DNA from: Methanomassiliicoccaceae archaeon
GTDB taxonomy: Archaea; Thermoplasmatota; Thermoplasmata; Methanomassiliicoccales; Methanomethylophilaceae
Direction of reading: 5' to 3'
Length of the DNA stretch: 64,000 bases
Assembly (NCBI GenBank): GCA_003560875.1
Contig: PWJQ01000057.1
Span: 1-64,000, forward strand
The notes under the pieces were generated by a model that saw nothing but the letters and a program-made list of their open reading frames with translations, was not told where the DNA came from and made no database searches. Positions 8,353 to 41,093 of the stretch are shown one piece after another. Numbering within the stretch: position 1 is the stretch's first letter; every line of letters starts with the position of its first letter. The position numbers and the translations under genes are program-made.

Positions 8353-8401
8353 CCCTCATCCATGCCCCAGAGGGCATATCAGGGCGGGCATTACCTGCAG
8401 T

Positions 8402-9079: not shown

Positions 9080-10211
9080 GGCGCGTGCACCTTTCCTTCA
9101 ACGCATCGAGCACCGCAGGGCGGCTGGTGTACTCCATCTCATCAGGACCGAGGATTGCGGGCATGAACGGTCCGTGACCGCGCATCATCATGCTGGCCTT
9201 GACAGAGTTCTGGCGGACCTCGTCCCAGACATCTCCGGCGAAGAAGTCGATGGGCGTGCGGTCCCCGGCGGGAGCGTCGTACGACTCCAGACCCTGGAAG
9301 CGACCGTTGTTGAGTTGGAAACCTATGCAGGCGATACGCGGCGGGCCGTCGAAGTAGGTGGGATCGGAATCCTCCACCGCACAGGGGTAGAAGGCGCCGT
9401 AGTGGGAGCCGCGCATCCATCCTGCCACCAGCATGGTGTTCATGTAGGGCTGGAGGTACTCGCCGACTGCCGGTAGTCCACTCTGACACCTGCATATGCA
9501 GACCGGGTCGTCCTTACCGACGTACTTACCGGCGGTGAGGTTCAGCTTGTCGGTGCTGACCACGGCGGCGGTCCCGGCACCGGCACGGCTCTCGACCCTC
9601 TTGATGGCGTAACGGGTTGTGTCACCGAGGAGGGTGAGCATGCTGTAAGTCTCCTCCGGGGAGGACATGGTCACCTTCTTGGAGTCCACCACGTCATGGA
9701 TCTCCATATCGAAACCCTTCGTTGCCCGGGGGTCGATCACCAGTCCGGTGGTCGTGAAGGGATCCAGGAATACACGGGACAAAGGAAGCGAGTAGGCCGA
9801 GGGCTCGGTCTTGTCGGCCATGAAGAACAGCATCGGTTCGGAGCCCCTCTCCTCGAATGTCATCTCGGCGGCACCGGGGCCGGCGCCCTTGATGTTACCG
9901 CTGAAGGCATCACAGAGGATGTCCTGACCGGCGGCGTAAAGCTTCATCTTCTTGGCGATTTCCGTAGCGGCCATGAAGGATTCCCATGCCAGCTCGTGAA
10001 CGTCGCAGTTGCCCTCTCCCTTATAGTGGGACATAAGCAGGTTGATATCATCTCCGACGCGGGTGACGTAGAAATCCTCGAGGCACCCGGTCTTCACCCC
10101 TTCTGCCAGGATTTCTTTGGCGGCTTCCATCATGGAGGGGTGCGGCCGGGAGTGTCCCACGACGGAACCCACATCGGCCTTTATCACTGAAACAGTAATT
10201 TTATCTGTCAT
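9072..10211 (-). CDS. fbp: Fructose-1,6-bisphosphate aldolase/phosphatase (archaeal bifunctional)
   Basis: ITVSVIKADVGSVVGHSRPHP N-terminus, DDINLLMSH, GNIKGAGPG. Confidence 0.95.
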   Translation of the reverse strand: MTDKITVSVIKADVGSVVGHSRPHPSMMEAAKEILAEGVKTGCLEDFYVTRVGDDINLLMSHYKGEGNCDVHELAWESFMAATEIAKKMKLYAAGQDILCDAFSGNIKGAGPGAAEMTFEERGSEPMLFFMADKTEPSAYSLPLSRVFLDPFTTTGLVIDPRATKGFDMEIHDVVDSKKVTMSSPEETYSMLTLLGDTTRYAIKRVESRAGAGTAAVVSTDKLNLTAGKYVGKDDPVCICRCQSGLPAVGEYLQPYMNTMLVAGWMRGSHYGAFYPCAVEDSDPTYFDGPPRIACIGFQLNNGRFQGLESYDAPAGDRTPIDFFAGDVWDEVRQNSVKASMMMRGHGPFMPAILGPDEMEYTSRPAVLDALKERCTRLD

Positions 10212-23092: not shown

Positions 23093-25020
23093 ATCACGCT
23101 GAGCAGCAGGTTCACCGCCCCTCCGATTATCACGGCCGTGCATATCGAGGCGAAGCCGACCGCGAGCGCGTTCTTTACGCCAAGCTCCTTCATGAGTACG
23201 GCCCAGGCGGCCAGACACGGCATGTATATGGCCATCACTACGGCGAACACCACGAACTGCTGAGGCGTCATGTACAACGACAGCTCTGATATGGTCATGG
23301 CCGGTAACAGCGTCACCAGCATGCCCACCGCCAGCTCCTTGCGCAGGATCCCGACGATGAACGCTATGATCACCACCGCCGGCAGCCCGAGAATGCCCAC
23401 GGTCAGGAAGCTCATCGGATCGATGATAAAATCCAGCGCGTCATAGGACAGGAGTATCTCCACGATGATGCTCCCCACCAATAGGAAGGGGAAGGCTATC
23501 ATGAAGAAGTCCTTGCTGCGGGAGTAGGTCTTGAAAGCGACGTTGTGGAGGGTGGGCCTCCTCAACTCAGGGATCTCCATCGCCAGACATGTGGGCTCCT
23601 TGCGCAGCCAACGGTCCATGACGAATCCCAGGAAAAGCAGTAGACCCAGTAGCAGAACGAATATCGCCGCGGCGGCGCCTATGCCGACGAACCGTGATAC
23701 CAGACCGATGATGATGGCCATCTGCGCACCGCAAGGGACCGCCATCACGATGAGCGTGGAGAGTATCAGCCTCTCCCTCTTGGAGCCGGCGGTGCGGGTG
23801 GCGAGGATGGCGGGGACGCTGCAACCGATGCCCACCATCATCGGTATGACCGCCCTGCCATGCAGACCCACCTTGTGCATCACTCCGTCGAGCAGAGCGA
23901 CCGCCCGGGGCATGTAGCCGGAATCCTCCAGCAGAGCGAGTATGATGTACCAGACCATCACGAACGGTATGATGAGCACCACGATGGCCTCGAAACCCAT
24001 CGAGACGCCGGCGCCTATGGAGGCTCCCAGGTCACCGGCGAGGGATTCGCCGAGATCCACCAGTATGTCACCGACCACCAGGTCGAAGAGTTCCTCAAGC
24101 TCATGCTCCAGCCATTCTCCGAAAATTACAATGGATAGGAAGATGGTCGCCAGCACACCCATCAGTATGGGTACGCCGGTGATCGGGCGCATGGTGAGGT
24201 CCGATAGTTTGTCCTTGAATGTCACAGGACCTTTGCGAGGCACGAGTACCTCCTTACGGATCCGCCCCGCCTCGCCGTAACGGTCACGGGTGATGTGTAT
24301 GTTGATGGATTCCCCGTGAAGCTCACGGAACTCCTTTGTAGCAACATAGGCCGATTCGTTGGCCTTCTCGTCATAGAGGGAGGAGATGTATTCATTCCCT
24401 TCCAACATCTTCAGGATGGCCCCTCTGCGCGGATACCTGCTCTCAGGTATCAGTTCCTGCAGTGATGATAGGTAATCCTCGATATGGGAGTCATAGCTTA
24501 CTTTGAACGAGGACTGCGAAGCCTCGTCGTCGACGACGGCCTGGGCGAGTTCGTCGACACCCTCACCGACCACTGCGGTGACCGGGTATATGGGCACGCC
24601 GAGTATGTCCTGCAGCCTGTCCACATCGATCTCGTACCGCTTCAGGGCGATGTCCATCTGGTTGAGCGCGATGATCACGGGATGACCCAGCTCCATGACC
24701 TGGAAGGTCAGGACCAGGCTGCTCTCCAGACGGGAGGCGTCTGCCACCACGACCACGGCGTCGAAATCGTTCTCCGCCAACATGCGCAGGGCCACCAACT
24801 CGTCCTCGCTCTCTCCGGAGAGGGAGTATGCCCCGGGAAGGTCGTGGACGTTGACCTTCTTCCTGTCCCTCAGGAAGCTGCCTTCCTTGAACTCCACCGT
24901 GGTACCGGGGTAGTTCGAGGCCATAACCCCCACGCCTGTCAGTTTCGAGAACAGCGTGGACTTGCCGACGTTAGGGTTCCCTATAAGGGCTAATTCCATT
25001 GTTTTACGATCGATATTCAT
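23089..25020 (-). CDS. feoB: Ferrous iron transport protein B
   Basis: ALIGNPNVGKSTLFSKLTG, DLPGAYSL, NQMD, C-terminal membrane domain with GCSVPAILATRT. Confidence 0.96.
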   Translation of the reverse strand: MNIDRKTMELALIGNPNVGKSTLFSKLTGVGVMASNYPGTTVEFKEGSFLRDRKKVNVHDLPGAYSLSGESEDELVALRMLAENDFDAVVVVADASRLESSLVLTFQVMELGHPVIIALNQMDIALKRYEIDVDRLQDILGVPIYPVTAVVGEGVDELAQAVVDDEASQSSFKVSYDSHIEDYLSSLQELIPESRYPRRGAILKMLEGNEYISSLYDEKANESAYVATKEFRELHGESINIHITRDRYGEAGRIRKEVLVPRKGPVTFKDKLSDLTMRPITGVPILMGVLATIFLSIVIFGEWLEHELEELFDLVVGDILVDLGESLAGDLGASIGAGVSMGFEAIVVLIIPFVMVWYIILALLEDSGYMPRAVALLDGVMHKVGLHGRAVIPMMVGIGCSVPAILATRTAGSKRERLILSTLIVMAVPCGAQMAIIIGLVSRFVGIGAAAAIFVLLLGLLLFLGFVMDRWLRKEPTCLAMEIPELRRPTLHNVAFKTYSRSKDFFMIAFPFLLVGSIIVEILLSYDALDFIIDPMSFLTVGILGLPAVVIIAFIVGILRKELAVGMLVTLLPAMTISELSLYMTPQQFVVFAVVMAIYMPCLAAWAVLMKELGVKNALAVGFASICTAVIIGGAVNLLLSVI

Positions 25021-25670
25021 TCCTCCTTATCGACCATGACCAGAGAAGTGTAATCACGATCCAGCGCCACCAGGCTGTCCTCCACCTTGACCACGATGGG
25101 GCCGCGGAGCGGCATCCCTCCTTCGACCCGTACCACCCTGCCGGGCACCAGGCCCATGGCGATGAGCTTACGGACCTTCTCCGGACTGTCACAGATCAGA
25201 TGGGATATGCATGCGCTCTCGCCGCCTTTCAATTGCGATAGTGACGTCCCTCCCATCTTTTTGTTCGCGCAGAGGTCCTCACAGAGCTCATCACACTCAC
25301 ATTCGTCGGGGGATCCTATTATGCGGCATAGTTTGCGAGCGGCATCATCGGAGAAACTGTGCTCTATGCTGCAGGCACTGGAATGTGCACTGTCCACATC
25401 GCTCCCCAACACCTCCACGAAGAACTTCTCCATCAGACGGTGTTTGCGATGCATACGGTGTGCATGTCGGTATCCCTTACGGGTGAGATTCGCGCCCCGG
25501 TATTTCTCATAATCCACCAGGCCCTCTTCGGACAGCCTTTTGACCATCTCGCTAACGCTCGCCGGACTGACGTTCAATGCCTCGGCGAGGTCCGTGGTCT
25601 TGGCGGGACCGCCCTCTTTGTTGAGCCTGTATACCGCGAGGAGGTAATCCTCCATGTTCGCGCTGACCAT
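25017..25670 (-). CDS. DtxR/MntR-family metalloregulator with FeoA-like domain and Cys-rich insert
   Basis: MEDYLLAVYRL, SVSEMVKRLSEEGLV, LTRKGYRHA, C-terminal SH3-like/FeoA segment; overlaps feoB start. Confidence 0.9.
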   Translation of the reverse strand: MVSANMEDYLLAVYRLNKEGGPAKTTDLAEALNVSPASVSEMVKRLSEEGLVDYEKYRGANLTRKGYRHAHRMHRKHRLMEKFFVEVLGSDVDSAHSSACSIEHSFSDDAARKLCRIIGSPDECECDELCEDLCANKKMGGTSLSQLKGGESACISHLICDSPEKVRKLIAMGLVPGRVVRVEGGMPLRGPIVVKVEDSLVALDRDYTSLVMVDKEE

Positions 25671-25685
25671 GGAAGGCGGAACTGT

Positions 25686-25715
25686 TTGCCATTATATAAA
25701 ATTAGGCAAGGCTAA
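25686..25715. promoter_or_regulatory. Candidate metal-responsive operator and TATA box for the dtxR-feoB operon
   Basis: TTGCC-(TATA-containing spacer)-GGCAA and overlapping TTAGGCAAGGCTAA immediately upstream of the dtxR-like start. Confidence 0.5.
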
Positions 25716-26740
25716 AAATCTTTGAACGGCACCAGGTCGCAACACCCGCACTCGAAACACATGGTGCTGTATGTCCGCGTGTCAAGGCCGTGCTCCTCGA
25801 GGATACTCTTCTGCTCCCTGCCGAGGCGTATGAGTCGGTCCGCGTCCACGTCGTTCAAGGTTCCCAGGGCATTCTCCAAAACGGAACGATTGCTGTCGTT
25901 GACCTTCAAGGGTCGTAAGCCGGCGGCACAGCCGATATCCGCCAGTCGACGGACCTCTTCGATGACCTGTTCGTCACTCTCCCCCAGACCGATGATGATG
26001 TTCGATGACACCTTGCCACGGCCGAATATGTCCACCGCCGCCTCTATCATGCGATGTATGTTGGCATGGTCCAATTCAGGGCACACCTTGGCGAAGATGT
26101 CGGCATCGGGGGTCTCGATGTTGATCTTCATCTCGTCGGCCCCGGCGTCACGGAGGTCCCAGAGTTGCTCCTCGTTCTCGACATAGGGCTCCACACCTAT
26201 GGTCACCCACGGTATCCTCTCGCGGATGAGGGAGACGGTCCTGACCATCCTCTCCACGGTGGCCTCCACGCTTCCCACCACCCCGCTGGTCAACGCCACC
26301 GATACGAAATCGTCACGTTCGGACGCCTCCGCCACCATATCGGATATGCTCTCCGGCGTCAGGTTCTTGGTGGCCTCGGTACCGAGTGACGGTGAAGTGC
26401 AGAACAGGCAATGGTAGTCGCAACGCTGGTCGAGGTTGAAGAACGCCTGCCCCGGTGAATGGTAAATGACCGGCTCTATCTCCACGGGATCGATGAACAC
26501 CTCGCCGTCACGTAGGATGCGCAGGCCGCCATCGTACGGTTGCAACTCGAATTCACCGTCCTCGCTGCTTATGGGCTTCTTGACCCTCATACCCGAGAAT
26601 CTGAACACCAGTCCCCTGGTCCCGGCGCCAGGGCCGGCGGTGGACCTCGATATTCGCACCGGAGGCCTCCAGTCCTGCGGTGTGCGCACAGCGCCACCTA
26701 GTATGAGTTCCGCCTTGCGACGGATCATATCCTCTTCCAT
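25712..26740 (-). CDS. Radical SAM protein of uncertain function
   Basis: CDYHCLFC (CX3CX2C), NIIIGLGESDEQVIEEV, C-terminal CFECGCC; overlaps the cysS 3' end. Confidence 0.8.
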   Translation of the reverse strand: MEEDMIRRKAELILGGAVRTPQDWRPPVRISRSTAGPGAGTRGLVFRFSGMRVKKPISSEDGEFELQPYDGGLRILRDGEVFIDPVEIEPVIYHSPGQAFFNLDQRCDYHCLFCTSPSLGTEATKNLTPESISDMVAEASERDDFVSVALTSGVVGSVEATVERMVRTVSLIRERIPWVTIGVEPYVENEEQLWDLRDAGADEMKINIETPDADIFAKVCPELDHANIHRMIEAAVDIFGRGKVSSNIIIGLGESDEQVIEEVRRLADIGCAAGLRPLKVNDSNRSVLENALGTLNDVDADRLIRLGREQKSILEEHGLDTRTYSTMCFECGCCDLVPFKDF

Positions 26741-28131
26741 CTGACGCCCTCCGCACCGTCCTCGAGTTGTATCCCCGCCTCTTTGAGCCGGTCCCTGATA
26801 AGGTCGGAGAGGTCGAAGGCCTTGCGACCACGCAACTCCTGACGGACGTCGGCGAGTATGCCGATGATAATGTCCAGCTCGCCATCGCCATCGGTAACGG
26901 GCAGTATGCCGAGGACGGCGTCGGCACTCTCCAGCAGTTTCAACGCCTCCCCGGCACCCGTGGCCGATAACTCGCCGGATGCCATCATCCGGTTCATCTC
27001 CCGGGTGAGGTCGAACAGCGCCGATATGGCTCCGCGGGTGTTGAAATCATCGTCCATGTGCTCATGGAAGGTCTGCGACGCGGCATCGATGATACCGGAG
27101 GCGTGATCCGGACCGGAGGCGGTGCGCAGATGGGACTGCAGGCTGCGGTAGGCGTTCCACAGCCGGCGCAACGAGGACTTGGACTCTTCCAGCGAGCCCT
27201 CGCTGTAGACCAACGGACCGCGGTAGTGGGTGTTGAGCAGATAGAAACGCAGGGTCTGGGCGTCGTGCTCCCGGAGTAGATCGCTCACACGGAAGAAGTT
27301 GCCCAGGGATTTGCTCATCTTCTCATCCTTGACCTGTAGCATCCCGTTGTGCATCCAGTAACGTGCCAGGGTGCCACCGGTCACGGCCTCGGTCTGCAGG
27401 ATCTCATTCTCATGATGCGGGAATATGAGGTCGTTACCGCCGCCATGGATGTCTATGAGGTCACCGAGACGGTCGCGTATCATCGCCGAGCACTCTATGT
27501 GCCAACCGGGACGGCCGTCACCCCAGGGCGAGGGCCAGGCCACCTCTCCATCCTTGGCGGCCTTCCAGACCGCAAAGTCCATGGGATTCCTCTTCTGCGG
27601 GTCCTGCATGACGTCCCGTGACCCGGCGACCATATCCTCCAACCGCTGGTTGGTGAGACGGCCGTAGTCCTTGATGCGGTCGATGCTGAAGTAGACGTTC
27701 CCGTCCTCGGTGGCGTAGCCGTAACCGTTGTCTATGATGTCCTGCACCATCCTCACGATGGCGTCCATGGACTCGCTGGCCTTGGGATAGATGTCGGCCC
27801 GCTTCACTTCGAGGGAGTCGACCTCGGCGAAGTAGCGGTCGATGTACCGTGCCGAGAGTTCCAAGGGGTCTATCCCCTCCTCGTTGGCACGGTTGATTAT
27901 CTTGTCATCGACATCGGTGAAATTGGTGACATGCGTGACGTCGTAACCCTTGTGACGCAGATAACGGTTGACCATGTCGAAGACCACGATGGAACGGGCG
28001 TGGCCGAGGTGTATGTCGTCGTACACGGTCACGCCGCAGACGTACATCGATACCTTACCCTCCTCCAAGGGCACGAAATCCTCCTTGCTGTTGGTCAGTG
28101 TGTTGTATATCCTAAGGGTCAAGAGAGTCAC
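26725..28131 (-). CDS. cysS: Cysteinyl-tRNA synthetase
   Basis: MYVCGVTVYDDIHLGHARS, WPSPWGDGRPGWHIECSAM, KMSKSLGNF. Confidence 0.97.
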   Translation of the reverse strand: MTLLTLRIYNTLTNSKEDFVPLEEGKVSMYVCGVTVYDDIHLGHARSIVVFDMVNRYLRHKGYDVTHVTNFTDVDDKIINRANEEGIDPLELSARYIDRYFAEVDSLEVKRADIYPKASESMDAIVRMVQDIIDNGYGYATEDGNVYFSIDRIKDYGRLTNQRLEDMVAGSRDVMQDPQKRNPMDFAVWKAAKDGEVAWPSPWGDGRPGWHIECSAMIRDRLGDLIDIHGGGNDLIFPHHENEILQTEAVTGGTLARYWMHNGMLQVKDEKMSKSLGNFFRVSDLLREHDAQTLRFYLLNTHYRGPLVYSEGSLEESKSSLRRLWNAYRSLQSHLRTASGPDHASGIIDAASQTFHEHMDDDFNTRGAISALFDLTREMNRMMASGELSATGAGEALKLLESADAVLGILPVTDGDGELDIIIGILADVRQELRGRKAFDLSDLIRDRLKEAGIQLEDGAEGVRWKRI

Positions 28132-28162: not shown

Positions 28163-28810
28163 TCACTTTTGCCCGTCCTCTAGGCGTTCCACCTTCTCCT
28201 TCAACAAGGTCAACTGGTCGGCCATCTCCTGCAGGGCCTCCTTCACCGGGTCGGGAAGGTCGTCGTGCTTCAACACCTCATCGATCCTCACCCCGCCCAT
28301 CTTGATGACCTTACCCGGTATGCCCACCACGGTGGAGTTGGGTGGGACGCCCTTGACGACCACCGACCCCGCGCCGATACGGGTGTTGGCTCCGATGACG
28401 ATGTCGCCGAGCACGGTGGCATTGGCGCCGATGACCACGTTCTCCTCGATGGTGGGATGCCTCTTGCCCTTCTGTGACGATACGCCGCCCAAGGTCACAC
28501 CCTGGAAGATGCACACATGGTCATTGATGACCGCCGTCTCTCCGATGACAACGCCGCTGGCGTGGTCGATGAACACATCCTCACCTATGGTGGCGCCAGG
28601 GTGGATGTCGGCGCCGGTGAGGATCCGACCCATATAGTTCAGCAAACGGGCGCGGCGATAGTTACCGCGGCGCCAATGGGCATTGCTGTGACGATGGAAA
28701 CGGATGGCGTGATAACCCTGACTGAACCATTTGGCATCCTTCTCGTCCCTGACCGCGGGATCGCGGTCCAAGACCGCTTTCAGATCGCGTTCCTTACTCA
28801 TCCTCATCAT
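28163..28810 (-). CDS. cysE: Serine O-acetyltransferase
   Basis: Left-handed beta-helix hexapeptide repeats; DIHPGATIGEDVFIDHASGVVIGETA. Confidence 0.92.
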   Translation of the reverse strand: MMRMSKERDLKAVLDRDPAVRDEKDAKWFSQGYHAIRFHRHSNAHWRRGNYRRARLLNYMGRILTGADIHPGATIGEDVFIDHASGVVIGETAVINDHVCIFQGVTLGGVSSQKGKRHPTIEENVVIGANATVLGDIVIGANTRIGAGSVVVKGVPPNSTVVGIPGKVIKMGGVRIDEVLKHDDLPDPVKEALQEMADQLTLLKEKVERLEDGQK

Positions 28811-29714
28811 CTCCGAATATACCGGTGCTCATGTAACGATCCCCGCCATCAGGAAGCACCGCCAAAACATTACCGGATCCCATCGCCTCGGCCAGGGCCA
28901 AAGCGGCGTGCACCGCGGCACCCGAGGAGGGGCCGACGAAGAGTCCCTCGTCACGGACCAATCTCCTCAGCGTTCCCCTGGCCTCCTCGAACGACACCGT
29001 GTAAACCTCATCGATGACGCTGCGGTCCAGGAGCTCAGGGATGAAATTAGCGCCGATGCCTTCGATCCTGTGCGGACCGGAGCGGCCCTCGCTTATCAAG
29101 GGGCTCTCAGCGGGCTCCACAGCCACGATGCGGACCGTGGGCTTGAAATTGCTCATCGCCCGGCCCACGCCGGTTATGGTGCCGCCGGTGCCCATACCCA
29201 TCACTATGGCGTCGACCTCAGGAAGGTCGTGGAGTATCTCCGCCGCCGTGCTGGAGTAATGGGCCAGGGCATTGGCGGGGTTCGAGAACTGGCTGGGCAT
29301 GAAGGCGTTCTGTTCTTTTACCATGTCCTCCGCCCTGCTCAGGGACCCGGCCATTCCTTCTGTGGACGGGGTGAGTACGAGCTCAGCCCCCAAGGCCTTG
29401 AGGAGTTGACGCCTCTCCCGGCTCATGGATTCGGGCATGACTATGGCCAGACGGTAACCTTTTACCGCCGCGACCATGGCCAGACCTATGCCGGTGTTGC
29501 CCGAGGTCGCCTCCACTATGAGCCCTCCGGGCGCCAGGAGTCCCCGGGCCTCGGCGTCCTCGACCATGGCGAGGGCAGCGCGGTCCTTGATGGAGCCCAT
29601 GGGGTTCATGGACTCCAGTTTGACGAATAGTTCCGCATCACCTCTGGGACGCACGCGGTTCAGACGTATCACCGGCGTTGCGCCGATGCACTTCAGCACG
29701 TTGTCCATGGGCAT
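28794..29714 (-). CDS. cysK: Cysteine synthase / O-acetylserine sulfhydrylase
   Basis: KLESMNPMGSIKDRAA, VEATSGNTGIGLA, GMGTGGTITGVG. Confidence 0.93.
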   Translation of the reverse strand: MPMDNVLKCIGATPVIRLNRVRPRGDAELFVKLESMNPMGSIKDRAALAMVEDAEARGLLAPGGLIVEATSGNTGIGLAMVAAVKGYRLAIVMPESMSRERRQLLKALGAELVLTPSTEGMAGSLSRAEDMVKEQNAFMPSQFSNPANALAHYSSTAAEILHDLPEVDAIVMGMGTGGTITGVGRAMSNFKPTVRIVAVEPAESPLISEGRSGPHRIEGIGANFIPELLDRSVIDEVYTVSFEEARGTLRRLVRDEGLFVGPSSGAAVHAALALAEAMGSGNVLAVLPDGGDRYMSTGIFGDDEDE

Positions 29715-29727
29715 TGTCGGATGGATA

Positions 29728-30276
29728 TCAGCGCATCAGACCCGCGGCGCGGAGTTCTGCGGCTATCCGGTCCACAGCCCTGACCACGTCATTGGGGACC
29801 TTGGCGCCGGTGCAGACCATCTTACCGCTGCCGAACAGGAGCACGACGACCTTGGGGTCGTCAAGACGATAGACGAGTCCCGGGAACTGTTCCGGCTCGT
29901 ACTCCACCTTCTCCAGGCCGAGGGTTATGGCCACGGTGTTGAGGTTGATCTCCTGTTCCAGATCGGAAGAGGCGACGATGTTCTGAACCTCGATGTTGGG
30001 TTCGATAGAAATGAAGATGCCGGCCTTCTCGATGTGTTTGGCGACCTTGCCGATGGCTACTTTCACATCGTCGAGACTCTTGGCACCGGTGCAAACGACC
30101 TTGCCGCTTCGGAATAGGAGTGTCGCGGTCTTGGGCTCCTTGAGCCTATATACTAATCCCGGGAATTGCTGGGGGTTGTACTCGGCTCCGTCGAGGGCAA
30201 GCTCTATCGCCCGGAGGTCGAGTTCCTGACCGAGGGACGTTGATGCTACTACGTTCTCAATTTTCATCTTTGCCAT
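29728..30276 (-). CDS. tbp: TATA-box binding protein
   Basis: Two direct TBP repeats: QFPGLVYRLKEPKTATLLFRSGKVVCTGAKS and QFPGLVYRLDDPKVVVLLFGSGKMVCTGAKV. Confidence 0.97.
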   Translation of the reverse strand: MAKMKIENVVASTSLGQELDLRAIELALDGAEYNPQQFPGLVYRLKEPKTATLLFRSGKVVCTGAKSLDDVKVAIGKVAKHIEKAGIFISIEPNIEVQNIVASSDLEQEINLNTVAITLGLEKVEYEPEQFPGLVYRLDDPKVVVLLFGSGKMVCTGAKVPNDVVRAVDRIAAELRAAGLMR

Positions 30277-30371: not shown

Positions 30372-31622
30372 TCATCGGCGCAGGCCTTGCAGGCTACGGT
30401 CCAGAAGTCTGAGGGTCCCATCCAGGCCGAGGAGCGGGTCCCGGCGTATGTTCACAGAGACCAGTCCGGGAGGGTCTATGTCCACCGCATTGAAGGCCGA
30501 ACCTGTGGCCAGGACATTGGCGGCGGTGTTGCCATCGGCGACGACCAGGTCGGCGGGACAGGAGAGCAGGTCCGTACTGGCTTCCCCGCAGCCTATCTCC
30601 TTCAGATAGTCCTCGGCGGCATCGGCACATGGACCTCCCTCGGTCAGATTGACCGCCACCGGGACCATGCCCAGATATCCGTTTAAGGTTTTCAGTATCG
30701 GAAGGGTCAATGACGGCCGCCCCTGAAGGGAGAAACTGGCACCGCGGGGCAGACCGTGATATTGGTCCAGACGGGTTATCTCCTTTCTCGCCCGCGACCT
30801 CGCCTCTTTGATCAGCGTCAATGCCGGTGACGGATCCGCTCCCAGGCGCTCACAGATGCCTTCTACCCAGGCCCGCAGCGGAGCGAATCCCAACGGGGCG
30901 CCCTGAGGGGAGCGGAAGAAGGGCGTCCCGTAGGTATCCTCATACCATCTGGCAGTGCGCAGGCAACGCTCATCATGAACGGCGACGTTCAAAGCGACCG
31001 TCCCGGAACGTTTCACCTCCTCCACGGAGCTATCGGCACCGGGGGCGCAGGTGACCTTGACGCCGCATGAGAACAGGAGCTTGCACAGGTCCTCGACGCT
31101 ATCCTCCCACCCGGTGTCGGCGACGGATATGCCCAACAGATTCACGGTCTTTCCCTCGTGCTCCCCATCGTCAGGCCTGAGGGCCTGCAGCACAGCCAGT
31201 ATGGCGGTCTCGTATCCCTCCGAGAAACTGCTGGAAGGGAGCGGACTCTCCATCGTGGCAGTGGGGATGTCCGAACTGAACCCGAACTCCTCACCTATCA
31301 ACGAGGCGCCGGGGGAGTTTATGAGACATATCAGCGACGGATTCCTGTTAAAGCTGTCGTTCCAGAGCTCCGTCATCCGGGCCTTGCATCCGGACACGTA
31401 GTCGTTGCTGTCCATATAGGTGCATGGAAGACGGGACTGGCCGAGATAGAATCGGGAGTCGTGCATCATGGGGTTGAAACCCCCGCGACGGGTCATCGCC
31501 TCCGCCAATGATGCCGGATAGTACTTGCAGCCGGTGGGGCCGTTCATGGCCGTTATGGAGCCTTTGAAGCCCTCGAAGGCCATGATGCTGCCCACGAGCC
31601 CCTCGGGGCCAAGGTCAGTCAT
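30372..31622 (-). CDS. Nitrogenase component 1-like protein, stand-alone subunit
   Basis: ITAMNGPTGCKYYPASL, SRLPCTYMDSNDYVSGC, LICLINSPGASLIGEE; ATG 31622 (SD-like ggagggaagagg) overlaps the upstream stop as ATGACTGA. Confidence 0.75.
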   Translation of the reverse strand: MTDLGPEGLVGSIMAFEGFKGSITAMNGPTGCKYYPASLAEAMTRRGGFNPMMHDSRFYLGQSRLPCTYMDSNDYVSGCKARMTELWNDSFNRNPSLICLINSPGASLIGEEFGFSSDIPTATMESPLPSSSFSEGYETAILAVLQALRPDDGEHEGKTVNLLGISVADTGWEDSVEDLCKLLFSCGVKVTCAPGADSSVEEVKRSGTVALNVAVHDERCLRTARWYEDTYGTPFFRSPQGAPLGFAPLRAWVEGICERLGADPSPALTLIKEARSRARKEITRLDQYHGLPRGASFSLQGRPSLTLPILKTLNGYLGMVPVAVNLTEGGPCADAAEDYLKEIGCGEASTDLLSCPADLVVADGNTAANVLATGSAFNAVDIDPPGLVSVNIRRDPLLGLDGTLRLLDRSLQGLRR

Positions 31623-33765
31623 CCTCTTCCCTCCATCCCTCGACACGGGGAGCTTTCAGGGCCAATGCCCAGTGCCGGGCCATCTCCAAAGGTGCTAGGT
31701 GCCCGATGTCGGGGACCATGGGGATCCTCTCCTGCACCACGCCCTCACGGTCGGTGACTGGATAGGTGCTGAGAAGGATGTCCGGCGATAATCGTAATGA
31801 TTCGTTGACCACATAGTCAATCACGTAGTCCTCGAGTAACTCGATCCTCTGTGAATGACGGTTGCCGACATGATAGTCCATCAGATGGTCGGAACGGTCC
31901 ACCACCACGGCACGGCGCAGTTCGATGCCCAGGTCGTCAATGAGGTCTATCAGCCAATCGATGTCCTTGTGCATGCTGATTATGCATGCCGACCTGCCCT
32001 CCAGCTCTTTGCGCAACGGTATGAGACCGGTACGGTACTCCGTCCCAAGTTCCGCGAGCAATCGTTCCACCTCGACGCCGCCCAGCGCCGCCAGCTCCCT
32101 TACCCAGGCCTCGGTGCCCACGATGCCGGCCGTCAGGGGCCTCTCCATCACCTTCACGCCGTGTTCATCGATCAGGAAGCTAGCCAGCATCCGGGTGAAA
32201 CGGTCGGTGTTGGCCAGGATGCTGACCTTGGCCTTTTTGAAACCCTCTATGCTGGTGACATCGGTACCGCCGATGAAACGGCAGTTGACGGACATCCCCA
32301 TCCTCCCCAGGATGGACGCCAAGAAGCTCATGTTACGCTCATTGTTAGTGGCTATGGGTTTGATCCCCACCACGTTGACCATCCCCTTGACCGGTGCAAG
32401 GTCTTGATCGATGAGATGATCGGCAAGTGCCACGCAGGCATCGATCACCCCTTGCATATGATCCCCGGCGGCATTTCCGTCCTCTATCATGGGAACTATC
32501 TTGGCGTCCGGGAACTCCGCCGACATCCTACGGACGGTCTCGACGACGTCATCACCGATGATGCCCGACGGACAGGAGCTGACCACAGCGATCCTTCCAC
32601 TGACGGAGGCCGCCTTGCGGATGGCTTCCTCCAGCAGGCCCTTGGCCCCGAAGACCATGGCGGGATCGTCCATGGATGTGCAGTGGGAACTGGGTTCCAG
32701 GAATGAGGGTATGGATATGCCTTCGCGCAGATACGCCCTCCTGGCGGCGTTCTGGGCCATCTGGCATGAGAGGTGGGCGCAGCTGTCCGGAGAGTGCATC
32801 ACCGTCTGCAGGCCCTGTACGGAAAGACATGTGACCACCGCCCCGGTGAACGCACAGCCGTGCAGGACCTCATGACGGTCGACGTTCCTCGATGTGTACA
32901 CCGGCGCGGATCGGGGGCGTCCGTTCGCCACCTTGGTAGCATTGACCATGACCTCGGCCTTACCGGCCTTCTCCTTTCCGAGAACGATCCTCTCCAGATC
33001 CTCATCGCTCAGGGGTTCCGCCTCACTGACGTCCCCCTCCAACATCATTGCCGCCAGTCGGTGGAAACAATCCGTGAGCTCGGTGGCGGGGAAGGTCTCG
33101 ACAACCGTCTTACCTCTCCTCTCGCCCTCCAGGAACAGGGGCGACCGCGGTATCTCCGCAACTATGGGGAGCCCTACGGCGGTTGCGAACGCGTGTACGC
33201 GGTCACGTTCCTCCTCCTCCCCGCGGCTGTTGAATATTATGCCTCCTATGCGCAGCGGGTCGTAGTTCCGCACCCCGCGCAGGATGTTGTTTGCGGCGTA
33301 GATGGCCATGAACTCCCCGGATGTGACGATGAACACCTTTTCAGCATAGTCGTTGCGCAGTGGCACCGCGAAACCGCCACAGACCACGTCGCCGAGAACA
33401 TCGTATATGGTGACATCAGCCTCCAAACGTTCCATGCCCAGCTCATCGAGGAGATCGAAGGTTGATAGTATGCCCCTGCCCGCACAACCGACACCGGGTT
33501 CAGGACCCCCCGCCTCCACGCACATGGAGCGGCCGTAGCCCTGCGCCACCACATCGAAGAGGGACATGTCCTCCTTGCGGGTGTTGCGGATGTAATCCAT
33601 GACTGTGGGGGGCTCCCTGCCGTCCAGAAGGAGCCGGGTGGAATCGTGCTTTGGGTCGCAGCCTATCTGCAGAACCTTTAGACCACGGGCGGACATGGCC
33701 GCGGTTATGTTCGCAGATATCGTCGATTTGCCTATGCCGCCTTTACCGTATATTGCGATCCGCAT
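31615..33765 (-). CDS. Fused NifH-like ATPase + nitrogenase component 1 (NifD/E)-like protein
   Basis: N-terminus MRIAIYGKGGIGKSTISAN, GVGCAGRGI, DVLGDVVCGGFAVP (NifH-type); C-terminal half HGCAFTGAVVTCLSVQGLQTVMHSPDSCAHLSC, SSCPSGIIGDDV (component 1-type). Confidence 0.85.
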   Translation of the reverse strand: MRIAIYGKGGIGKSTISANITAAMSARGLKVLQIGCDPKHDSTRLLLDGREPPTVMDYIRNTRKEDMSLFDVVAQGYGRSMCVEAGGPEPGVGCAGRGILSTFDLLDELGMERLEADVTIYDVLGDVVCGGFAVPLRNDYAEKVFIVTSGEFMAIYAANNILRGVRNYDPLRIGGIIFNSRGEEEERDRVHAFATAVGLPIVAEIPRSPLFLEGERRGKTVVETFPATELTDCFHRLAAMMLEGDVSEAEPLSDEDLERIVLGKEKAGKAEVMVNATKVANGRPRSAPVYTSRNVDRHEVLHGCAFTGAVVTCLSVQGLQTVMHSPDSCAHLSCQMAQNAARRAYLREGISIPSFLEPSSHCTSMDDPAMVFGAKGLLEEAIRKAASVSGRIAVVSSCPSGIIGDDVVETVRRMSAEFPDAKIVPMIEDGNAAGDHMQGVIDACVALADHLIDQDLAPVKGMVNVVGIKPIATNNERNMSFLASILGRMGMSVNCRFIGGTDVTSIEGFKKAKVSILANTDRFTRMLASFLIDEHGVKVMERPLTAGIVGTEAWVRELAALGGVEVERLLAELGTEYRTGLIPLRKELEGRSACIISMHKDIDWLIDLIDDLGIELRRAVVVDRSDHLMDYHVGNRHSQRIELLEDYVIDYVVNESLRLSPDILLSTYPVTDREGVVQERIPMVPDIGHLAPLEMARHWALALKAPRVEGWREEDD

Positions 33766-33861: not shown

Positions 33862-33935
33862 TGGGGCCGGGAGGGAGATTTGAACTCCCGTCTGCGGATC
33901 TGCAGTCCGCCACATGGCCTCTATGTTACCCCGGC
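33862..33935 (-). tRNA. tRNA-Cys (GCA)
   Basis: Minus strand folds as cloverleaf: acceptor GCCGGGG/TCCCGGC, anticodon stem GCGGA/TCCGC with loop CTGCAGA, T-arm GGGAG-TTCAAAT-CTCCC; followed by C-CCA. Confidence 0.95.
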
Positions 33936-34049: not shown

Positions 34050-34895
34050 ATGTTGCCGGGACACTGCAAGGACGTTTCCTTGCGAGAAGTGGAGCACGAA
34101 CTCACCGTCGGGGCCATCGCAGAGGGTATGAAGGGACGCAAGGCGTACACCAGGACGGATTACATGGTCCTCAGGAACGGCGATGCCCACGCGGTCATAG
34201 CTCTGCGTAAGAAGAGGGGCAAGGATCTATTCCAAGCGGTGGTCGGTCATGATGTCCTCTCACTGCCCTCCGACACGGTTTTCGTTCATGACCCGGGGTT
34301 GGACGTGATAAACCCCTCGTCACTGCTGCGTTTGGCCAACAGACATCCCGGCAAGACCGTGGTGGTGGAGGGGATGTTCAATCATCTTAATTTCGTACAT
34401 GAACTCCAAGGACTCCCCCTGCGGGTTATCGATGATGTGCCGCCCAACCCCTCCAAACTCTCGGTCTTGGCGGAGAAGGCCCTGACATCAGGATTCCTCG
34501 ATCTGCCGATAGTGCCCGAGGTCGTGGACCTGGATATCGCATCCTACATCAAGGATGTCGCCACCGAGGCGGTTATGTTCCCTTGTCGCGTATCGGGTAT
34601 AGAAGCGGACATACCGGTGTACTTCCTGGACGAGAACCCGGAACTGAGGCATGAGGTGACATTGATAGGATGCCATCTCTCCAAGAGGATATTCGAGTCA
34701 CTCTACCGTCGGGAGCCGGCCTTCATAAACGTCTGCCCTCAGGACCATGTTCCTGACGATGGAGTTCCAACCGTTATCAAATGCTGCAAGATCAAGAACG
34801 GCTTCAAGGCCGAGGGGCATCTGCGTTCAGTCCCCTGGGGGGCCACTGTGCCCGAGGTCGCCGAGGCCATCAGGTCCTTCTACCCCTCAGCGTAG
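34050..34895 (+). CDS. Conserved-looking hypothetical protein (possible archaeal uncharacterised family)
   Basis: Long ORF with normal coding character, several Cys in the C-terminal half; family not recognised. Confidence 0.6.
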   Translation: MLPGHCKDVSLREVEHELTVGAIAEGMKGRKAYTRTDYMVLRNGDAHAVIALRKKRGKDLFQAVVGHDVLSLPSDTVFVHDPGLDVINPSSLLRLANRHPGKTVVVEGMFNHLNFVHELQGLPLRVIDDVPPNPSKLSVLAEKALTSGFLDLPIVPEVVDLDIASYIKDVATEAVMFPCRVSGIEADIPVYFLDENPELRHEVTLIGCHLSKRIFESLYRREPAFINVCPQDHVPDDGVPTVIKCCKIKNGFKAEGHLRSVPWGATVPEVAEAIRSFYPSA

Positions 34896-37001: not shown

Positions 37002-37754
37002 TCGTCCGGCGGGGTCCCTCTTGCGGCGTCCGAACTCCGGAAGCAGCCTCAACCGCCCGGAGTCGAAGACCGGGCCATCGACACATACCCTCTCACGGCC
37101 CAGCATGCAAGAGCCGCAGATGCCCACGGCGCATTTCATGTATCGCTCCAAGGAAAGTTGCACGGGTATGCCGCGACGTTCGCAGGCTTGGAAAAGATAG
37201 TAGAGCATTATCTCCGGTCCGCAGGCGATCACCTGCTCGTAACCGCCTTTCTCCATAAGGGTCTCGGCCAACTGCACCGCGTTACCGTGGAAGCCTTGGC
37301 TGCCGTCGTCGGTGGATATCTCGATGACGTTGCAGTAGCGGGACGCCTCCTCCTCGAAGAGTATCTCGTCCGCACTGCGGGCACCGATCACCAGGTCGGC
37401 GTATATCGTCCGCAGCACGGGCATCAGGGGCGCCATCCCCACCCCGCCGCCGACGACCAGGGTCTTCGACCCGTTGAGGTCGAAACCGTTCCCATAGGGT
37501 CCGCGGACAGCGAACCTTTCCCCCGGTCGGAGAGACTGGAGGGCGGAGCTGGCCTCACCGGCCTTGCGGACGGTTATCGACTTCTCCGATCCTATCGAGG
37601 AGACGGACATCGGTATCTCGTCCAGACCGGGCATCCATACCATCAGGAACTGTCCCGGCGACACGTGGACGTCCCAATCGAATGTCAATGTCACGGTGTC
37701 CTTGGATTCCGATCTCCTGTCCTTCACTATGACCGCATCACTCATGGGCGGCAC
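36987..37754 (-). CDS. pyrK: Dihydroorotate dehydrogenase electron transfer subunit
   Basis: VRGPYGNGFDLNG, VVGGGVGMAPLMP, KCAVGICGSCMLGRERVCVDGPVF. Confidence 0.9.
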   Translation of the reverse strand: MPPMSDAVIVKDRRSESKDTVTLTFDWDVHVSPGQFLMVWMPGLDEIPMSVSSIGSEKSITVRKAGEASSALQSLRPGERFAVRGPYGNGFDLNGSKTLVVGGGVGMAPLMPVLRTIYADLVIGARSADEILFEEEASRYCNVIEISTDDGSQGFHGNAVQLAETLMEKGGYEQVIACGPEIMLYYLFQACERRGIPVQLSLERYMKCAVGICGSCMLGRERVCVDGPVFDSGRLRLLPEFGRRKRDPAGRLIGI

Positions 37755-38655
37755 CTCTCATGCTCCCTATATCAGGATATCCGTAAGAACTCATGAAACG
37801 AAGCAGACCGGCGGTTATGTCCGTGAACACCTCCGGTCCGACACGCCCCACCGCGCTACCGACCTGGAAGCATGACGCACCGGCCATGATGTACTCGGCA
37901 GCATCCTTCCAGTCCTCGATACCGCCCACGCCCACGATGGGGATGTCCAATGATGCGTAGAGGTCGTACACCGCCCTGACACCGACCGGTTTTATGGCCG
38001 GACCGGAGAGGCCGCCGTAACGGTTGGATAGCACCGGTCGGGCGAACTCCGGGGAGATGACCATGGCCTTGAGGGTGTTGATGGCGACCACCGCGTCCCC
38101 GCCGGCGTCCTGCACGGCCTTACCGATGCTGACGATATCGGCGGTGTTGGGCGTTAGTTTGGCCATTACCGGGACCTTGACGGCATCCTTCACAGCGGCG
38201 ACTATCTTGTGCACGGACCTTGGGTCGGTCCCCACCTACATGCCGTAGCCGGAAGCGTGCGGACAGCTGAGGTTGAGCTCGATGCCCGCGGCACCGGCCG
38301 CCTCCATCCGGGATGCGATGACGGCGAAGTCCTCAGCGGAGGCGGCGTATATCGATGCCACCACCGGAGCCGGGCAGGGCATCACGGAGGACAGCTCGTC
38401 GGCGAACTCCTCCATGCCGGGGTTGGGGAGGCCCATGGCGTTCACGTATCCGGTCGGAGTCTCCACGATACAGGGGTTCCTGTGGCCATCGTGCGCCGCG
38501 ATACCAATGGACTTGGTCACCACGGCCCCGGCGCCGGCCTCCATCATACGGAGCAGGGATTCCCCGGTCTCATCAAGTATGCCTGAGGCTAGAATCGAGG
38601 GGTTGGCCATCTCTATGGATGCAATTCTGACAGTGAGGTCGGTCATCGTCATCAC
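37738..38655 (-). CDS. pyrD: Dihydroorotate dehydrogenase interrupted by one in-frame TAG codon (38236-38238)
   Basis: Upstream part ends ...ELNLSCPHASGYGM, then TAG, then VGTDPRSVHKIVAAVKDAVKVPVMAKLTPN... in the same frame; both parts are PyrD. Confidence 0.85.
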
Positions 38656-38657
38656 GT

Positions 38658-39818
38658 CTATGCAGTCGTCGCATTAAACCGCTTTCCTTCCCTGAGGTTT
38701 GAAATGACGGTCGGCAGCATTTCGAGGACGTAATCCACGTCCGCCTCCGTGGTGTGATGGGAGAGGCCGAGACGCAGGGATGACTCCGCCTGGTTCCAGG
38801 TGAGTCCCATCGCAGTGAGCACATGGGAGGGGGAGGGACTGCTGGCGCTACAGGCGGATGCGGTGGACGCGGCGATGCCCAGGTCACTGAGTTTCAACAC
38901 CAGTTCGGTGCCGTTGACCGCATCGATGCGGAAGTGGGCGTTGTTCGCCAGCCGCGGGGAGCGGTGGCCGTTGAGGTGCACACCGTCCATGGTCAGTAAT
39001 TCGTCGATGAGTCTGTCCCTGAGTAATGCCATACGCCCGTCGGCATCCCTCATCCGGGCATCGGCCGCCAAGGCCGCCTTACCCAATCCCACGATGCCGG
39101 GGACGTTCTCCGTGGATGGTCTCATGCCGCCCTCCTGACCGCCGCCGAAGGTCAGGGGCGCCACGGGAGTGCCTTCACGGATGAAGAGCGCTCCGACACC
39201 TTTCGGACCGTGGATCTTGTGGGCGGAGACGGACAGCAGGTCGGCCTTCAGCGTCCTCAGGTCCAATGGCATGCGGCAGAAGCCTTGGACGGCATCGGTG
39301 TGGAACAGGGCCCCGTGGGCATGGCTTATATCTATCAGTTCCTGAAGAGGTTGTATGGTCCCGACGACGTTGTTGGCGGCCATGATGGACACCAGCACCA
39401 CATCATCCCCCATGGCTTTCTGTAACTCCTCAGGATCCACCAGTCCACCCTCGTCCACCGGCAGCACTGTCAGTGGGTGCCCCTCGTCATGTAGGGCGTG
39501 ACAGACATCGAGGACGGCGGAATGCTCCACCGCCGTGGTCACCACCCTCCCCTTCCGGGCGGAGGCCTTCATGCAACCGATGATGGCCATGTTGTCGGCC
39601 TCGGTGCCTCCCGAGGTGAAGAACAATTCGCTGGGATAGCATCTCAGGACGGATGCCAACTCCTTTCTGGCGAGGGTCATCGCAGCCGCCGCCTCATCAC
39701 CCAACCAATGGAGGCTGCTGGGATTGCCGTAGCTCTCCCTCATGTAAGGGAGCATGTGATCCAGAACCTCGGGGTCGAGACATGTGGTCGCATTGTTGTC
39801 CAGGTAGACCCGTCGCAT
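38658..39818 (-). CDS. Cysteine desulfurase (NifS/IscS-like)
   Basis: VYLDNNATTCLDPEV, FTSGGTEADN, SVSAHKIHGPKGVGALF, ASTASACSASSPSPSHVL. Confidence 0.92.
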   Translation of the reverse strand: MRRVYLDNNATTCLDPEVLDHMLPYMRESYGNPSSLHWLGDEAAAAMTLARKELASVLRCYPSELFFTSGGTEADNMAIIGCMKASARKGRVVTTAVEHSAVLDVCHALHDEGHPLTVLPVDEGGLVDPEELQKAMGDDVVLVSIMAANNVVGTIQPLQELIDISHAHGALFHTDAVQGFCRMPLDLRTLKADLLSVSAHKIHGPKGVGALFIREGTPVAPLTFGGGQEGGMRPSTENVPGIVGLGKAALAADARMRDADGRMALLRDRLIDELLTMDGVHLNGHRSPRLANNAHFRIDAVNGTELVLKLSDLGIAASTASACSASSPSPSHVLTAMGLTWNQAESSLRLGLSHHTTEADVDYVLEMLPTVISNLREGKRFNATTA

Positions 39819-39893
39819 ACCATGGTCATCGTAACCACGGTAATTATTGCTTATGGGGGAAACTTCAATAAACGGCAACGGAATTGAGGCCAC

Positions 39894-41093
39894 ATGGACG
39901 TCAGGCGCATCCGTGAGGATTTCCCCATTCTGAGGAAAGGGGACATCGTGTACATGGACAGTGCCTGTCAGAGTCTTAAACCCGACCGCGTCATGGCGGC
40001 CATGGATCTCTACAACAACGAGTTCCCCGCCTGTGGAGGGCGCAGTGTGCACCGCCTTGCGAACCGGGTGTCCATCGCCGTTGACGAAGCGAGGGAGCGT
40101 CTCGCAACGCTCATTGGCTCCACCTCTGCCGAGAACGTCATATTCACCAAGAACTGCACCGAGGCGCTGAACACGATCGCCAACGGCCTCGGTCTACGGG
40201 AAGGGGACAAGGTCATCACCACGGACATCGAGCATAACTCCAATCACGTCCCATGGCTGAGATTGAAGGATAGGGGGGTGGGAAGGGCTTTCGCCCCCAC
40301 TGTCGATGGTGTTCTGGACCTCGATGCGTTCCAGGAGATGTTGGACCCTTCGGTCAAGGTCGTCTCCATGGTGCACACCTCCAACGTGACCGGCACCACT
40401 GTCCCGGCGAAGGAGGTCATAAGCATGGCGCATGACAACGGGTCGCTGGTCGTTCTGGACGGCGCACAGCATGTCGGTCACGCCCCTACGGACGTAACCG
40501 ACCTGGATGTCGACTTCTACACCGTATCGGTGCAGAAGATCCTGGGACCCACCGGGGTCGGTCTGCTGTATGGGAAGGAGGACCTCTTGAAGGAGCTGAG
40601 CCCTCTCAGCGTGGGCGGCGGGACCGTGGGCTTGGCCGACTACGGGTCGGTCGAACTTCTGCCCCCGCCGGAGAGATTCGAGGCCGGACTTCTGAACTAC
40701 GCTGGCATAATCGGCGCCGGGGCCGCGGCGGATTATCTGCTGGAGATCGGACTCGATGAGGTGAGGGACCATGAGACCTCCTTGAACCGTAGATTGTGGA
40801 ACCGTTTGTCATCGATGCCCGAGGTGGATATCATCGGACCTGACGACCCCGGCCTCCGGGCGGGCATCACATCATTCAACGTCAAAACGATGGGATCGCA
40901 TGATGCGGCGATGATACTGGATGAGATGGCGGCGGTCCTCGTCAGATCGGGCATGCACTGCTGTCACCCCTGGTTCCAATCGCGCGGGATAGCGGGATGC
41001 GTACGCGCATCCATGCACATCTATAACGACGAGAGGGACGTGTCCAGGCTCAGCGATGCATTGGAGGACATGCTGTCTACCTTCTGCAGATGA
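39894..41093 (+). CDS. Cysteine desulfurase/aminotransferase class V (SufS/CsdA-like)
   Basis: YMDSACQSLKP, TKNCTEALN, VLDGAQHVGHAP, SVQKILGPTGVGLLYG, RSGMHCCHPW. Confidence 0.88.
   Translation: MDVRRIREDFPILRKGDIVYMDSACQSLKPDRVMAAMDLYNNEFPACGGRSVHRLANRVSIAVDEARERLATLIGSTSAENVIFTKNCTEALNTIANGLGLREGDKVITTDIEHNSNHVPWLRLKDRGVGRAFAPTVDGVLDLDAFQEMLDPSVKVVSMVHTSNVTGTTVPAKEVISMAHDNGSLVVLDGAQHVGHAPTDVTDLDVDFYTVSVQKILGPTGVGLLYGKEDLLKELSPLSVGGGTVGLADYGSVELLPPPERFEAGLLNYAGIIGAGAAADYLLEIGLDEVRDHETSLNRRLWNRLSSMPEVDIIGPDDPGLRAGITSFNVKTMGSHDAAMILDEMAAVLVRSGMHCCHPWFQSRGIAGCVRASMHIYNDERDVSRLSDALEDMLSTFCR

What the first reader, a model, noticed from the sequence alone, without database searches (positions are those of the whole stretch)
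30372..33765. Nitrogenase-like operon with a NifH-NifD/E gene fusion
Seen directly: one uninterrupted 716-codon ORF starts with a NifH-type ATPase (GKGGIGKST and the two cluster-ligand contexts GCAGRGI and DVVCGG) and continues into a nitrogenase component 1-like domain with three P-cluster-like Cys contexts. A second, divergent component 1-like gene follows with an 8-nt ATGACTGA overlap. Known nitrogenase-like systems (Nif, Bch/Chl, CfbCD, Mar) normally keep the ATPase as a separate dimeric protein, so a covalent fusion changes the docking logic. I saw no obvious FeMo-cofactor Cys in the fused subunit and no adjacent nifEN or nifB. Inference: an uncharacterised reductase acting on a tetrapyrrole, sulfur compound or other small molecule, not dinitrogen fixation.
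Basis: partly seen in the sequence, partly recalled or inferred. Interest (0 to 1): 0.85.

Follow-up and report, generated by a model that had tools for sequence, protein, structure and literature searches.

The report
Fused nitrogenase-like reductase in methanogens
A methane-producing archaeon carries a nitrogenase-like enzyme whose electron-delivery protein is permanently fused to its catalytic subunit; it is not a nitrogen-fixing enzyme, and across related genomes it travels with a metal-inserting enzyme of the kind used to make chlorophyll and vitamin B12, so it most likely reduces a ring-shaped tetrapyrrole compound that nobody has identified yet.

Summary
One 716-codon ORF (31615-33765, minus) fuses a NifH ATPase (residues 1-262) by a floppy linker to a nitrogenase component-1 subunit (D half). 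An 8-nt overlap leads into a second component-1 gene (K, 30372-31622). It is not an assembly artefact: the fusion occurs in 33 of 61 Methanomassiliicoccales genomes searched, in two families. It is not CfbCD, which the same genome encodes separately, and it forms its own clade.

Predicted cluster: one [4Fe-4S] held by three Cys from D and one from K. FeMo-cofactor ligands are absent. K's closest solved structures are BchB, the protochlorophyllide reductase subunit.

New evidence: the orphan archaeal chelatase CobN occurs in 29 of 33 genomes with the fusion and 0 of 28 without (Fisher 3e-13). It does not track corrin synthesis. CobN, ChlI/D, CbiZ, CbiA and FecCD-type transporters recur beside the fusion in other genera. 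Best reading: an ATP-driven tetrapyrrole reductase paired with a class I chelatase; substrate unknown.

The fused architecture was reported in 2012, 2014 and 2024, without a function. This window's own genus has a cysteine context (tRNA-Cys, cysK, cysE, cysS), so a sulfur role is not excluded.

The parts
31615..33765 (-). NifH-NifD/E fusion gene (HD), 716 aa
   Evidence: ORF; Pfam PF00142 + PF00148; present in 33 of 61 genomes of the order searched
32980..33765 (-). NifH-type ATPase half (residues 1-262), P-loop GKGGIGKST, [4Fe-4S] ligands Cys94 and Cys129
   Evidence: model matches NifH structures, TMt about 0.9
32866..32979 (-). interdomain linker (residues 263-300), 19-50 aa across the family, predicted disordered
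   Evidence: pLDDT below 50 for residues 266-286; linker lengths
31618..32865 (-). component-1 alpha-like half (D, residues 301-716) with cluster ligands Cys304, Cys329, Cys398
   Evidence: ligand mapping to NifD C62/C88/C154 positions and BchN; closest profile match in the PDB is NifE
30372..31622 (-). component-1 beta-like partner (K), 416 aa from ATG 31622; one conserved cluster ligand, Cys32 (Cys40 counted from the upstream GTG at 31646)
   Evidence: model closest to BchB of DPOR
31615..31622 (-). 8-nt overlap ATGACTGA between the HD stop and the K start (translational coupling inferred)
33862..33935 (-). tRNA-Cys(GCA) just upstream of HD on the same strand; same position in g1, g8 and g10 relatives
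34050..34895 (+). divergent neighbour, XcbA family / DUF7714 (coenzyme M biosynthesis family); context, not shown to be part of the system
   Evidence: 238.7 bits, cut-off 150
29728..30276 (-). TATA-box-binding protein, downstream context in own genus
28794..29714 (-). cysteine synthase cysK, downstream context in own genus
   Evidence: TIGR01139 over cut-off
28163..28810 (-). serine O-acetyltransferase cysE/EpsC, context
26725..28131 (-). cysteinyl-tRNA synthetase cysS, named from its sequence and conserved synteny (no family search run), context

Best explanation
HD and K together form one ATP-dependent reductase of the nitrogenase-like type. The H domain takes low-potential electrons (presumably from ferredoxin) on its [4Fe-4S] cluster and, driven by MgATP hydrolysis, passes them to a [4Fe-4S] cluster at the D-K interface (three Cys from D, one from K). 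From there they go to an organic substrate bound directly in the D-K pocket, as in DPOR and COR, with no FeMo-type cofactor. The substrate is most likely a tetrapyrrole handled together with the CobN + ChlI/ChlD class I chelatase that the same genomes carry, either imported through FecCD-type transporters or built locally. Whether the chemical step is a ring C=C reduction or reduction of the bound metal is not resolved. Covalent fusion keeps one H per D at all times. The linker is flexible, and an (HD)2K2 unit holds only two H domains for two docking sites that would each need an H dimer, so I infer one H dimer per complex or swapping between complexes. SHOWN: architecture, conservation, cluster-ligand pattern, own clade, genomic association with CobN. 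INFERRED: electron path, [4Fe-4S] type, stoichiometry, substrate class.
For: Cluster ligands: D Cys304/329/398 conserved 34-35/35 and K Cys32 conserved 39/39 at the position of BchB Asp36 and NifK Cys95; other NifK-type ligands missing from K; FeMo-cofactor ligands missing. K fold: the 13 best PDB matches are all DPOR BchB, TM up to 0.82; a profile search also ranks BchB first. CobN (PF02514) in 29/33 fusion-bearing genomes and 0/28 without, Fisher 2.6e-13; of 9 genera with both states 8 agree, none disagrees, one ties; copy numbers correlate, Spearman 0.68. CobN is independent of corrin-ring synthesis: all 12 fusion genomes lacking CbiC have CobN, all 9 CbiC genomes lacking the fusion lack CobN. 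Neighbourhoods: CobN within 7 kb of 9/55 fusions (1.9 expected, P 9e-5) and CbiZ of 7/55 (0.96 expected, P 3.5e-5); operons BP2-FecCD-ABC-CbiZ-ChlI/D-HD-K in L046, L048 and L049, and CobN 81-127 bp upstream of HD in L099 and L105. In the window's own subclade: HD-K-CbiA-BP2-FecCD in L043, CbiA 57 bp upstream in L039, CobN end upstream in L041, divergent CobD-CbiB-CbiZ-CobS operon in L042. Own genome has a ChlI-ChlD-CobN operon on another contig.
Against: In the window's own genus the operon is not next to any tetrapyrrole gene; it lies between tRNA-Cys and tbp-cysK-cysE-cysS. Four fusion genomes (G009, G021, G022, G041) have no CobN, so CobN is not essential to it. The co-location and Fisher tests treat related genomes as independent. 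The D half is closer to NifE and NifD than to BchN. BP2/FecCD transporters also carry siderophores and other chelates. CobN occurs without the fusion in other Thermoplasmatota. No substrate, pocket model or complex model was obtained.
Confidence: 0.58

Rival explanations
1. A sulfur-compound reductase (sulfonate, thioether or coenzyme M related), working like isethionate reductase or methylthio-alkane reductase, feeding the cysteine genes next door.
For: In g1, g8 and g10 HD-K sits between tRNA-Cys and cysK-cysE-cysS, with a divergent XcbA (coenzyme M) family gene. Mar and Isr are group IV nitrogenase-like enzymes (PMC11423573).
Against: The cysteine context is confined to g1, g8 and g10 among the loci compared, and part of it is translation (tRNA-Cys, cysS). 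No radical-SAM B gene recurs next to the fusion, and the Cys275-type ligand that PMC3464626 associates with cysK-linked members is absent in 35/35. The CobN association is left unexplained.
Confidence: 0.14
2. A corrinoid-specific enzyme of cobamide salvage: ATP-driven reduction of Co(II) to Co(I) before adenosylation, or remodelling of an imported corrinoid. This is a narrower version of the best explanation.
For: CbiZ, CbiA, CbiB-CobS, CobN and BtuFCD-like transporter genes beside the fusion in several genera. CbiZ is present in all other g1 genomes.
Against: CobN has no established role in salvage; CbiZ is nearly universal in these genomes (38/39); relatives without the fusion are also expected to use corrinoids.
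Confidence: 0.2
3. A metallocofactor scaffold or maturase like NifEN, coupled to metal uptake, as suggested by Dos Santos 2012 for transporter-linked members.
For: D profile is closest to NifE and the 3+1 Cys pattern equals that of NifEN. FecCD transporters recur. nifB is present in 57/61 genomes.
Against: The NifE Cys that holds the L-cluster is not conserved. NifB occurrence does not follow the fusion. No recipient enzyme is linked to it.
Confidence: 0.07
4. A variant of the F430 enzyme CfbCD.
For: The H half scores best against the CfbC model among NCBI families (320.8 bits).
Against: The score is below that model's cut-off, as is the genome's own CfbC, so the score does not decide. The fusion H halves form one clade apart from CfbC; D and K form clades apart from CfbD. 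CfbD works without a K subunit. The genome has separate CfbC, CfbD and CfbB on contig C70.
Confidence: 0.02
5. A replacement for cobalt-precorrin-6A reductase (CbiJ) in corrin ring synthesis.
For: DPOR reduces a ring double bond, a similar chemical task (established knowledge); no tool result supports it.
Against: Own genus lacks CbiC as well as CbiJ in 5 of 6 genomes including a 97%-complete one, yet keeps the fusion; most other fusion genomes have CbiJ.
Confidence: 0.01

Closest known systems
Uncharacterised fused NifH-NifE followed by NifN-like gene (Dos Santos 2012 PMC3464626; Borrel 2014 PMC4153887; cluster 443 in PMC11237513)
   Same: Same gene architecture; same order (Methanomassiliicoccales) in the 2014 and 2024 papers
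   Different: The passages read give no clade, ligand pattern, context or function; the 2012 paper removed fused sequences from its tree
Dark-operative protochlorophyllide reductase, BchL-BchN-BchB
   Same: Three-part H/D/K logic, one interface [4Fe-4S], no FeMo-type cofactor; K fold closest to BchB; a CobN/BchH-type chelatase gene lies between bchB and bchL in Sulfitobacter (L071)
   Different: BchL is a separate protein; BchB uses Asp36 where K has Cys; sequence scores far below the BchB cut-off; this is a methanogen, not a phototroph
Chlorophyllide a reductase, BchX-BchY-BchZ
   Same: Acts on a tetrapyrrole; recalled from memory to use 3+1 Cys, as predicted here
   Different: Separate BchX; BchY/Z sequences were not compared here
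NifEN cofactor scaffold
   Same: 3 Cys from NifE + 1 from NifN at the same alignment positions; D profile closest to NifE
   Different: No conserved L-cluster Cys; H fused; no nif operon
CfbCD (F430 biosynthesis)
   Same: Group IV nitrogenase-like enzyme of methanogens acting on a tetrapyrrole
   Different: Unfused, CfbD without a K subunit; separate clade; encoded separately in this genome
Methylthio-alkane reductase MarHDK and isethionate reductase IsrHDK
   Same: Group IV H/D/K reductases
   Different: Unfused, come with a radical-SAM B protein; Mar uses nitrogenase-type metalloclusters (PMC12552129, abstract); the cofactor ligand is absent here

Membership tests
Nitrogenase (NifHDK) | FeMo-cofactor ligands Cys275 and His442 in D | tested here: not met
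   0/35 Cys, 3/35 His
Nitrogenase (NifHDK) | Six-Cys P-cluster site (three per subunit) | tested here: not met
   D has three, K has one
CfbCD | Separate ATPase, and catalytic CfbD without a K subunit | tested here: not met
   H fused to D, plus a K subunit
CfbCD | Groups with CfbC / CfbD in trees | tested here: not met
DPOR (BchLNB) | Three Cys from N and Asp from B at the interface cluster | tested here: not met
   Cys replaces Asp
DPOR (BchLNB) | Curated BchB score cut-off (490 bits) | tested here: not met
   28.2 bits
DPOR (BchLNB) | BchB-like fold of the K subunit | tested here: met
   top 13 PDB hits
DPOR (BchLNB) | Reduces a tetrapyrrole in vitro | not testable with these tools
   needs purified enzyme
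COR (BchXYZ) | 3+1 Cys interface cluster | tested here: inconclusive
   pattern present here, but that COR has it is from memory and no COR sequence was aligned
NifEN | 3 (NifE) + 1 (NifN) Cys cluster | tested here: met
NifEN | Conserved L-cluster Cys in NifE | tested here: not met
MarBHDK / IsrBHDK | Adjacent radical-SAM B gene | tested here: inconclusive
   no recurrent radical-SAM cluster among neighbours across genera; one rSAM gene lies six genes downstream of HD in g1 synteny (25712-26740)
MarBHDK | Cys275-type active-site ligand in D | tested here: not met
Fused NifHE + NifN-like (uncharacterised) | NifH fused to NifD/E in one ORF followed by a NifK/N-like gene | tested here: met

The most novel reading that the evidence does not exclude
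Methanomassiliicoccales use a previously unknown tetrapyrrole pathway, de novo or salvage, built on the logic of chlorophyll synthesis: a class I chelatase (CobN-ChlI-ChlD) sets or removes the metal and a covalently fused nitrogenase-like reductase reduces the ring. It would be neither cobalamin nor F430 synthesis and would give the orphan archaeal CobN homologues a role.
Probability: 0.3. Interest if true: 0.88.

Novelty: new variant of a known kind. Interest (0 to 1): 0.68.

Why it matters
Nitrogenase-like enzymes have repeatedly turned out to run unexpected reactions. Here a covalent H-D fusion changes how the ATPase can dock. [quoted passage not shown] The close link between CobN and this fusion inside one order of methanogens makes that open question directly testable.

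Tried and rejected
Assembly artefact: rejected, the fusion is in 33 of 61 genomes of the order. CfbCD: rejected by trees and by separate Cfb genes. CbiJ replacement: rejected. Nitrogen fixation: ligands absent. NifB as a discriminating marker: failed, since nifB is in 57/61 genomes. Foldseek of the fusion returned only NifH hits, so the D half was placed by sequence profile instead. CobB/CfbB co-location with the fusion is weak (P 0.02 at 3 kb, 0.09 at 7 kb). Paper searches for a link between a nitrogenase-like fusion and chelatase or tetrapyrrole genes in this order found none in the open library.

Full report
CHECK OF THE OBSERVATION. The ORF at 31615-33765 (minus) encodes 716 residues without interruption. 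Residues 1-262 are NifH (PF00142, E 1.8e-89), residues 304-669 are nitrogenase component 1 (PF00148, E 4.1e-48), and the next gene is a second component 1 (PF00148, E 3.6e-36). The sequence at the junction is ATGACTGA, an 8-nt overlap. The fusion is therefore real.

WHERE IT LIVES. The window is part of a 1.05-Mb, 81%-complete genome. The nearest named relatives are MAGs of Methanomassiliicoccaceae / Ca. Methanomethylophilaceae. Fusions occur in 33 of 61 genomes (own plus 60 relatives), counting genomes whose copy is split or truncated, in two families of the order, often in several copies. In a sample of 247 Thermoplasmatota genomes, full-length matches were confined to this order.

ANATOMY. 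Across 35 fusions the H half keeps the P-loop and both cluster ligands (Cys94, Cys129). The D half keeps Cys304, Cys329 and Cys398 (34-35/35). Aligned with Rhizobium NifDKEN, Sulfitobacter BchNB and CfbD, these three are the P-cluster / BchN positions. K keeps one Cys (39/39) at the position of BchB Asp36, NifK Cys95 and NifN Cys44, and lacks the other two NifK ligands. The FeMo-cofactor positions are not conserved. The expected cluster is one [4Fe-4S] with 3+1 Cys ligands; this is inferred from sequence. The AlphaFold model of HD has confident domains and a disordered linker (residues 266-286 below pLDDT 50; pTM 0.61). K is modelled well (pLDDT 91.9), and its 13 best PDB matches are all BchB of DPOR. 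D is closest to NifE by profile, and K is closest to BchB and MarK.

RELATIONSHIPS. In an ML tree of H domains all 35 fusions form one clade (94/99), apart from CfbC (98/93, including this genome's own CfbC) and from NifH. D halves form one clade and K partners another (SH-aLRT 99 each), with parallel subclades; CfbD is separate (quick tree, with long branches among the references). The same genome has CfbD (392.9 bits, cut-off 268.4), CfbC and CfbB on contig C70, so F430 synthesis is provided for elsewhere.

GENE CONTEXT. In the window's genus and two close genera the order is tRNA-Cys, HD, K, tbp, cysK, cysE, cysS, with a divergent XcbA-family gene. In other genera the neighbours are FecCD permease, its ATPase and binding protein, CbiZ, CobN, ChlI/ChlD, CbiA and CbiX. 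Examples: binding protein-FecCD-ATPase-CbiZ-ChlI-ChlD-HD-K in one direction (L046, L049); CobN 81 and 127 bp upstream of HD (L099, L105); and, in the window's own subclade, HD-K-CbiA-binding protein-FecCD-ATPase (L043), CbiA-HD (L039), CobN-x-HD-K (L041) and a divergent CobD-CbiB-CbiZ-CobS operon (L042). CobN lies within 7 kb of 9 of 55 fusions (1.9 expected) and CbiZ of 7 of 55 (0.96 expected); these P values ignore relatedness.

THE MAIN NEW RESULT. CobN (PF02514) is present in 29 of 33 genomes with the fusion and in 0 of 28 without it: Fisher 2.6e-13. In nine genera that contain both states, eight agree, none disagrees and one ties (sign test 0.008). Copy numbers correlate over 39 genomes (Spearman 0.68, P 2e-6). 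The counts of copies were made by hand from the search tables. CobN does not follow corrin-ring synthesis (CobN x CbiC P 0.20): all 12 fusion genomes without CbiC have CobN, and all 9 CbiC genomes without the fusion lack it. This genome carries ChlI-ChlD-CobN as an operon on contig C28 (CobN over the TIGR02257 cut-off). Outside the order CobN occurs without the fusion, so the link is a property of this order as far as tested.

MECHANISM. The best-supported reading is an ATP-driven reductase of DPOR/COR type, with H permanently tethered, acting on a tetrapyrrole handled with the CobN-ChlID chelatase. The architecture, ligand pattern and co-occurrence are shown. The electron path, cluster type, stoichiometry and substrate are inferred. 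CbiJ replacement was tested and rejected. A sulfur role is kept as a rival because of the cysteine context in this genus.

NOVELTY. The fused architecture is known: Dos Santos 2012, Borrel 2014 and the 2024 fusion survey. None of the passages read gives a function. The clade, ligand pattern and CobN association are, to the extent the open library was searched, not reported.

Noticed in passing
window 38236-38238 (minus): In-frame TAG splits a dihydroorotate-dehydrogenase-like ORF (37738-38655) where relatives have Glu; could be a pyrrolysine codon, a pseudogene or a sequencing error.
   Followed up: partly
L040 about 6956-9088 (-) and L096 about 6316-8397 (-): Fusion genes of G027 and G203 carry one in-frame TAG each; several CobN genes (G191, G029, G209, G236) carry one or two. 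Possible pyrrolysine readthrough in this order.
   Followed up: partly
L055:13929-16507 (-): A D-K pair without the H domain, between CobN and CbiZ, next to a complete HD-K in G008.
   Followed up: no
L108 / L091 (G021 contig C62): Operon of binding protein-FecCD-ATPase-separate NifH followed by two very divergent component-1-like ORFs: another unassigned nitrogenase-like system.
   Followed up: partly
L107 (G068): A Thermoplasmatota genome outside the order has NifH, two small ORFs, then D and K, like nifH-I1-I2-D-K; not verified as a nitrogenase.
   Followed up: no
L083, L084, L080: nifHDK with E/N-like genes in some Methanomassiliicoccales relatives (G056, G015, G059), distinct from the fusion.
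   Followed up: partly
window 23089-25670 and 38658-41093: FeoB with a DtxR/MntR-like regulator, and two cysteine desulfurases, near the operon.
   Followed up: no
61 genomes of the order: nifB is present in 57 of 61 genomes, including many with no nitrogenase found; consistent with a role outside nitrogen fixation.
   Followed up: partly
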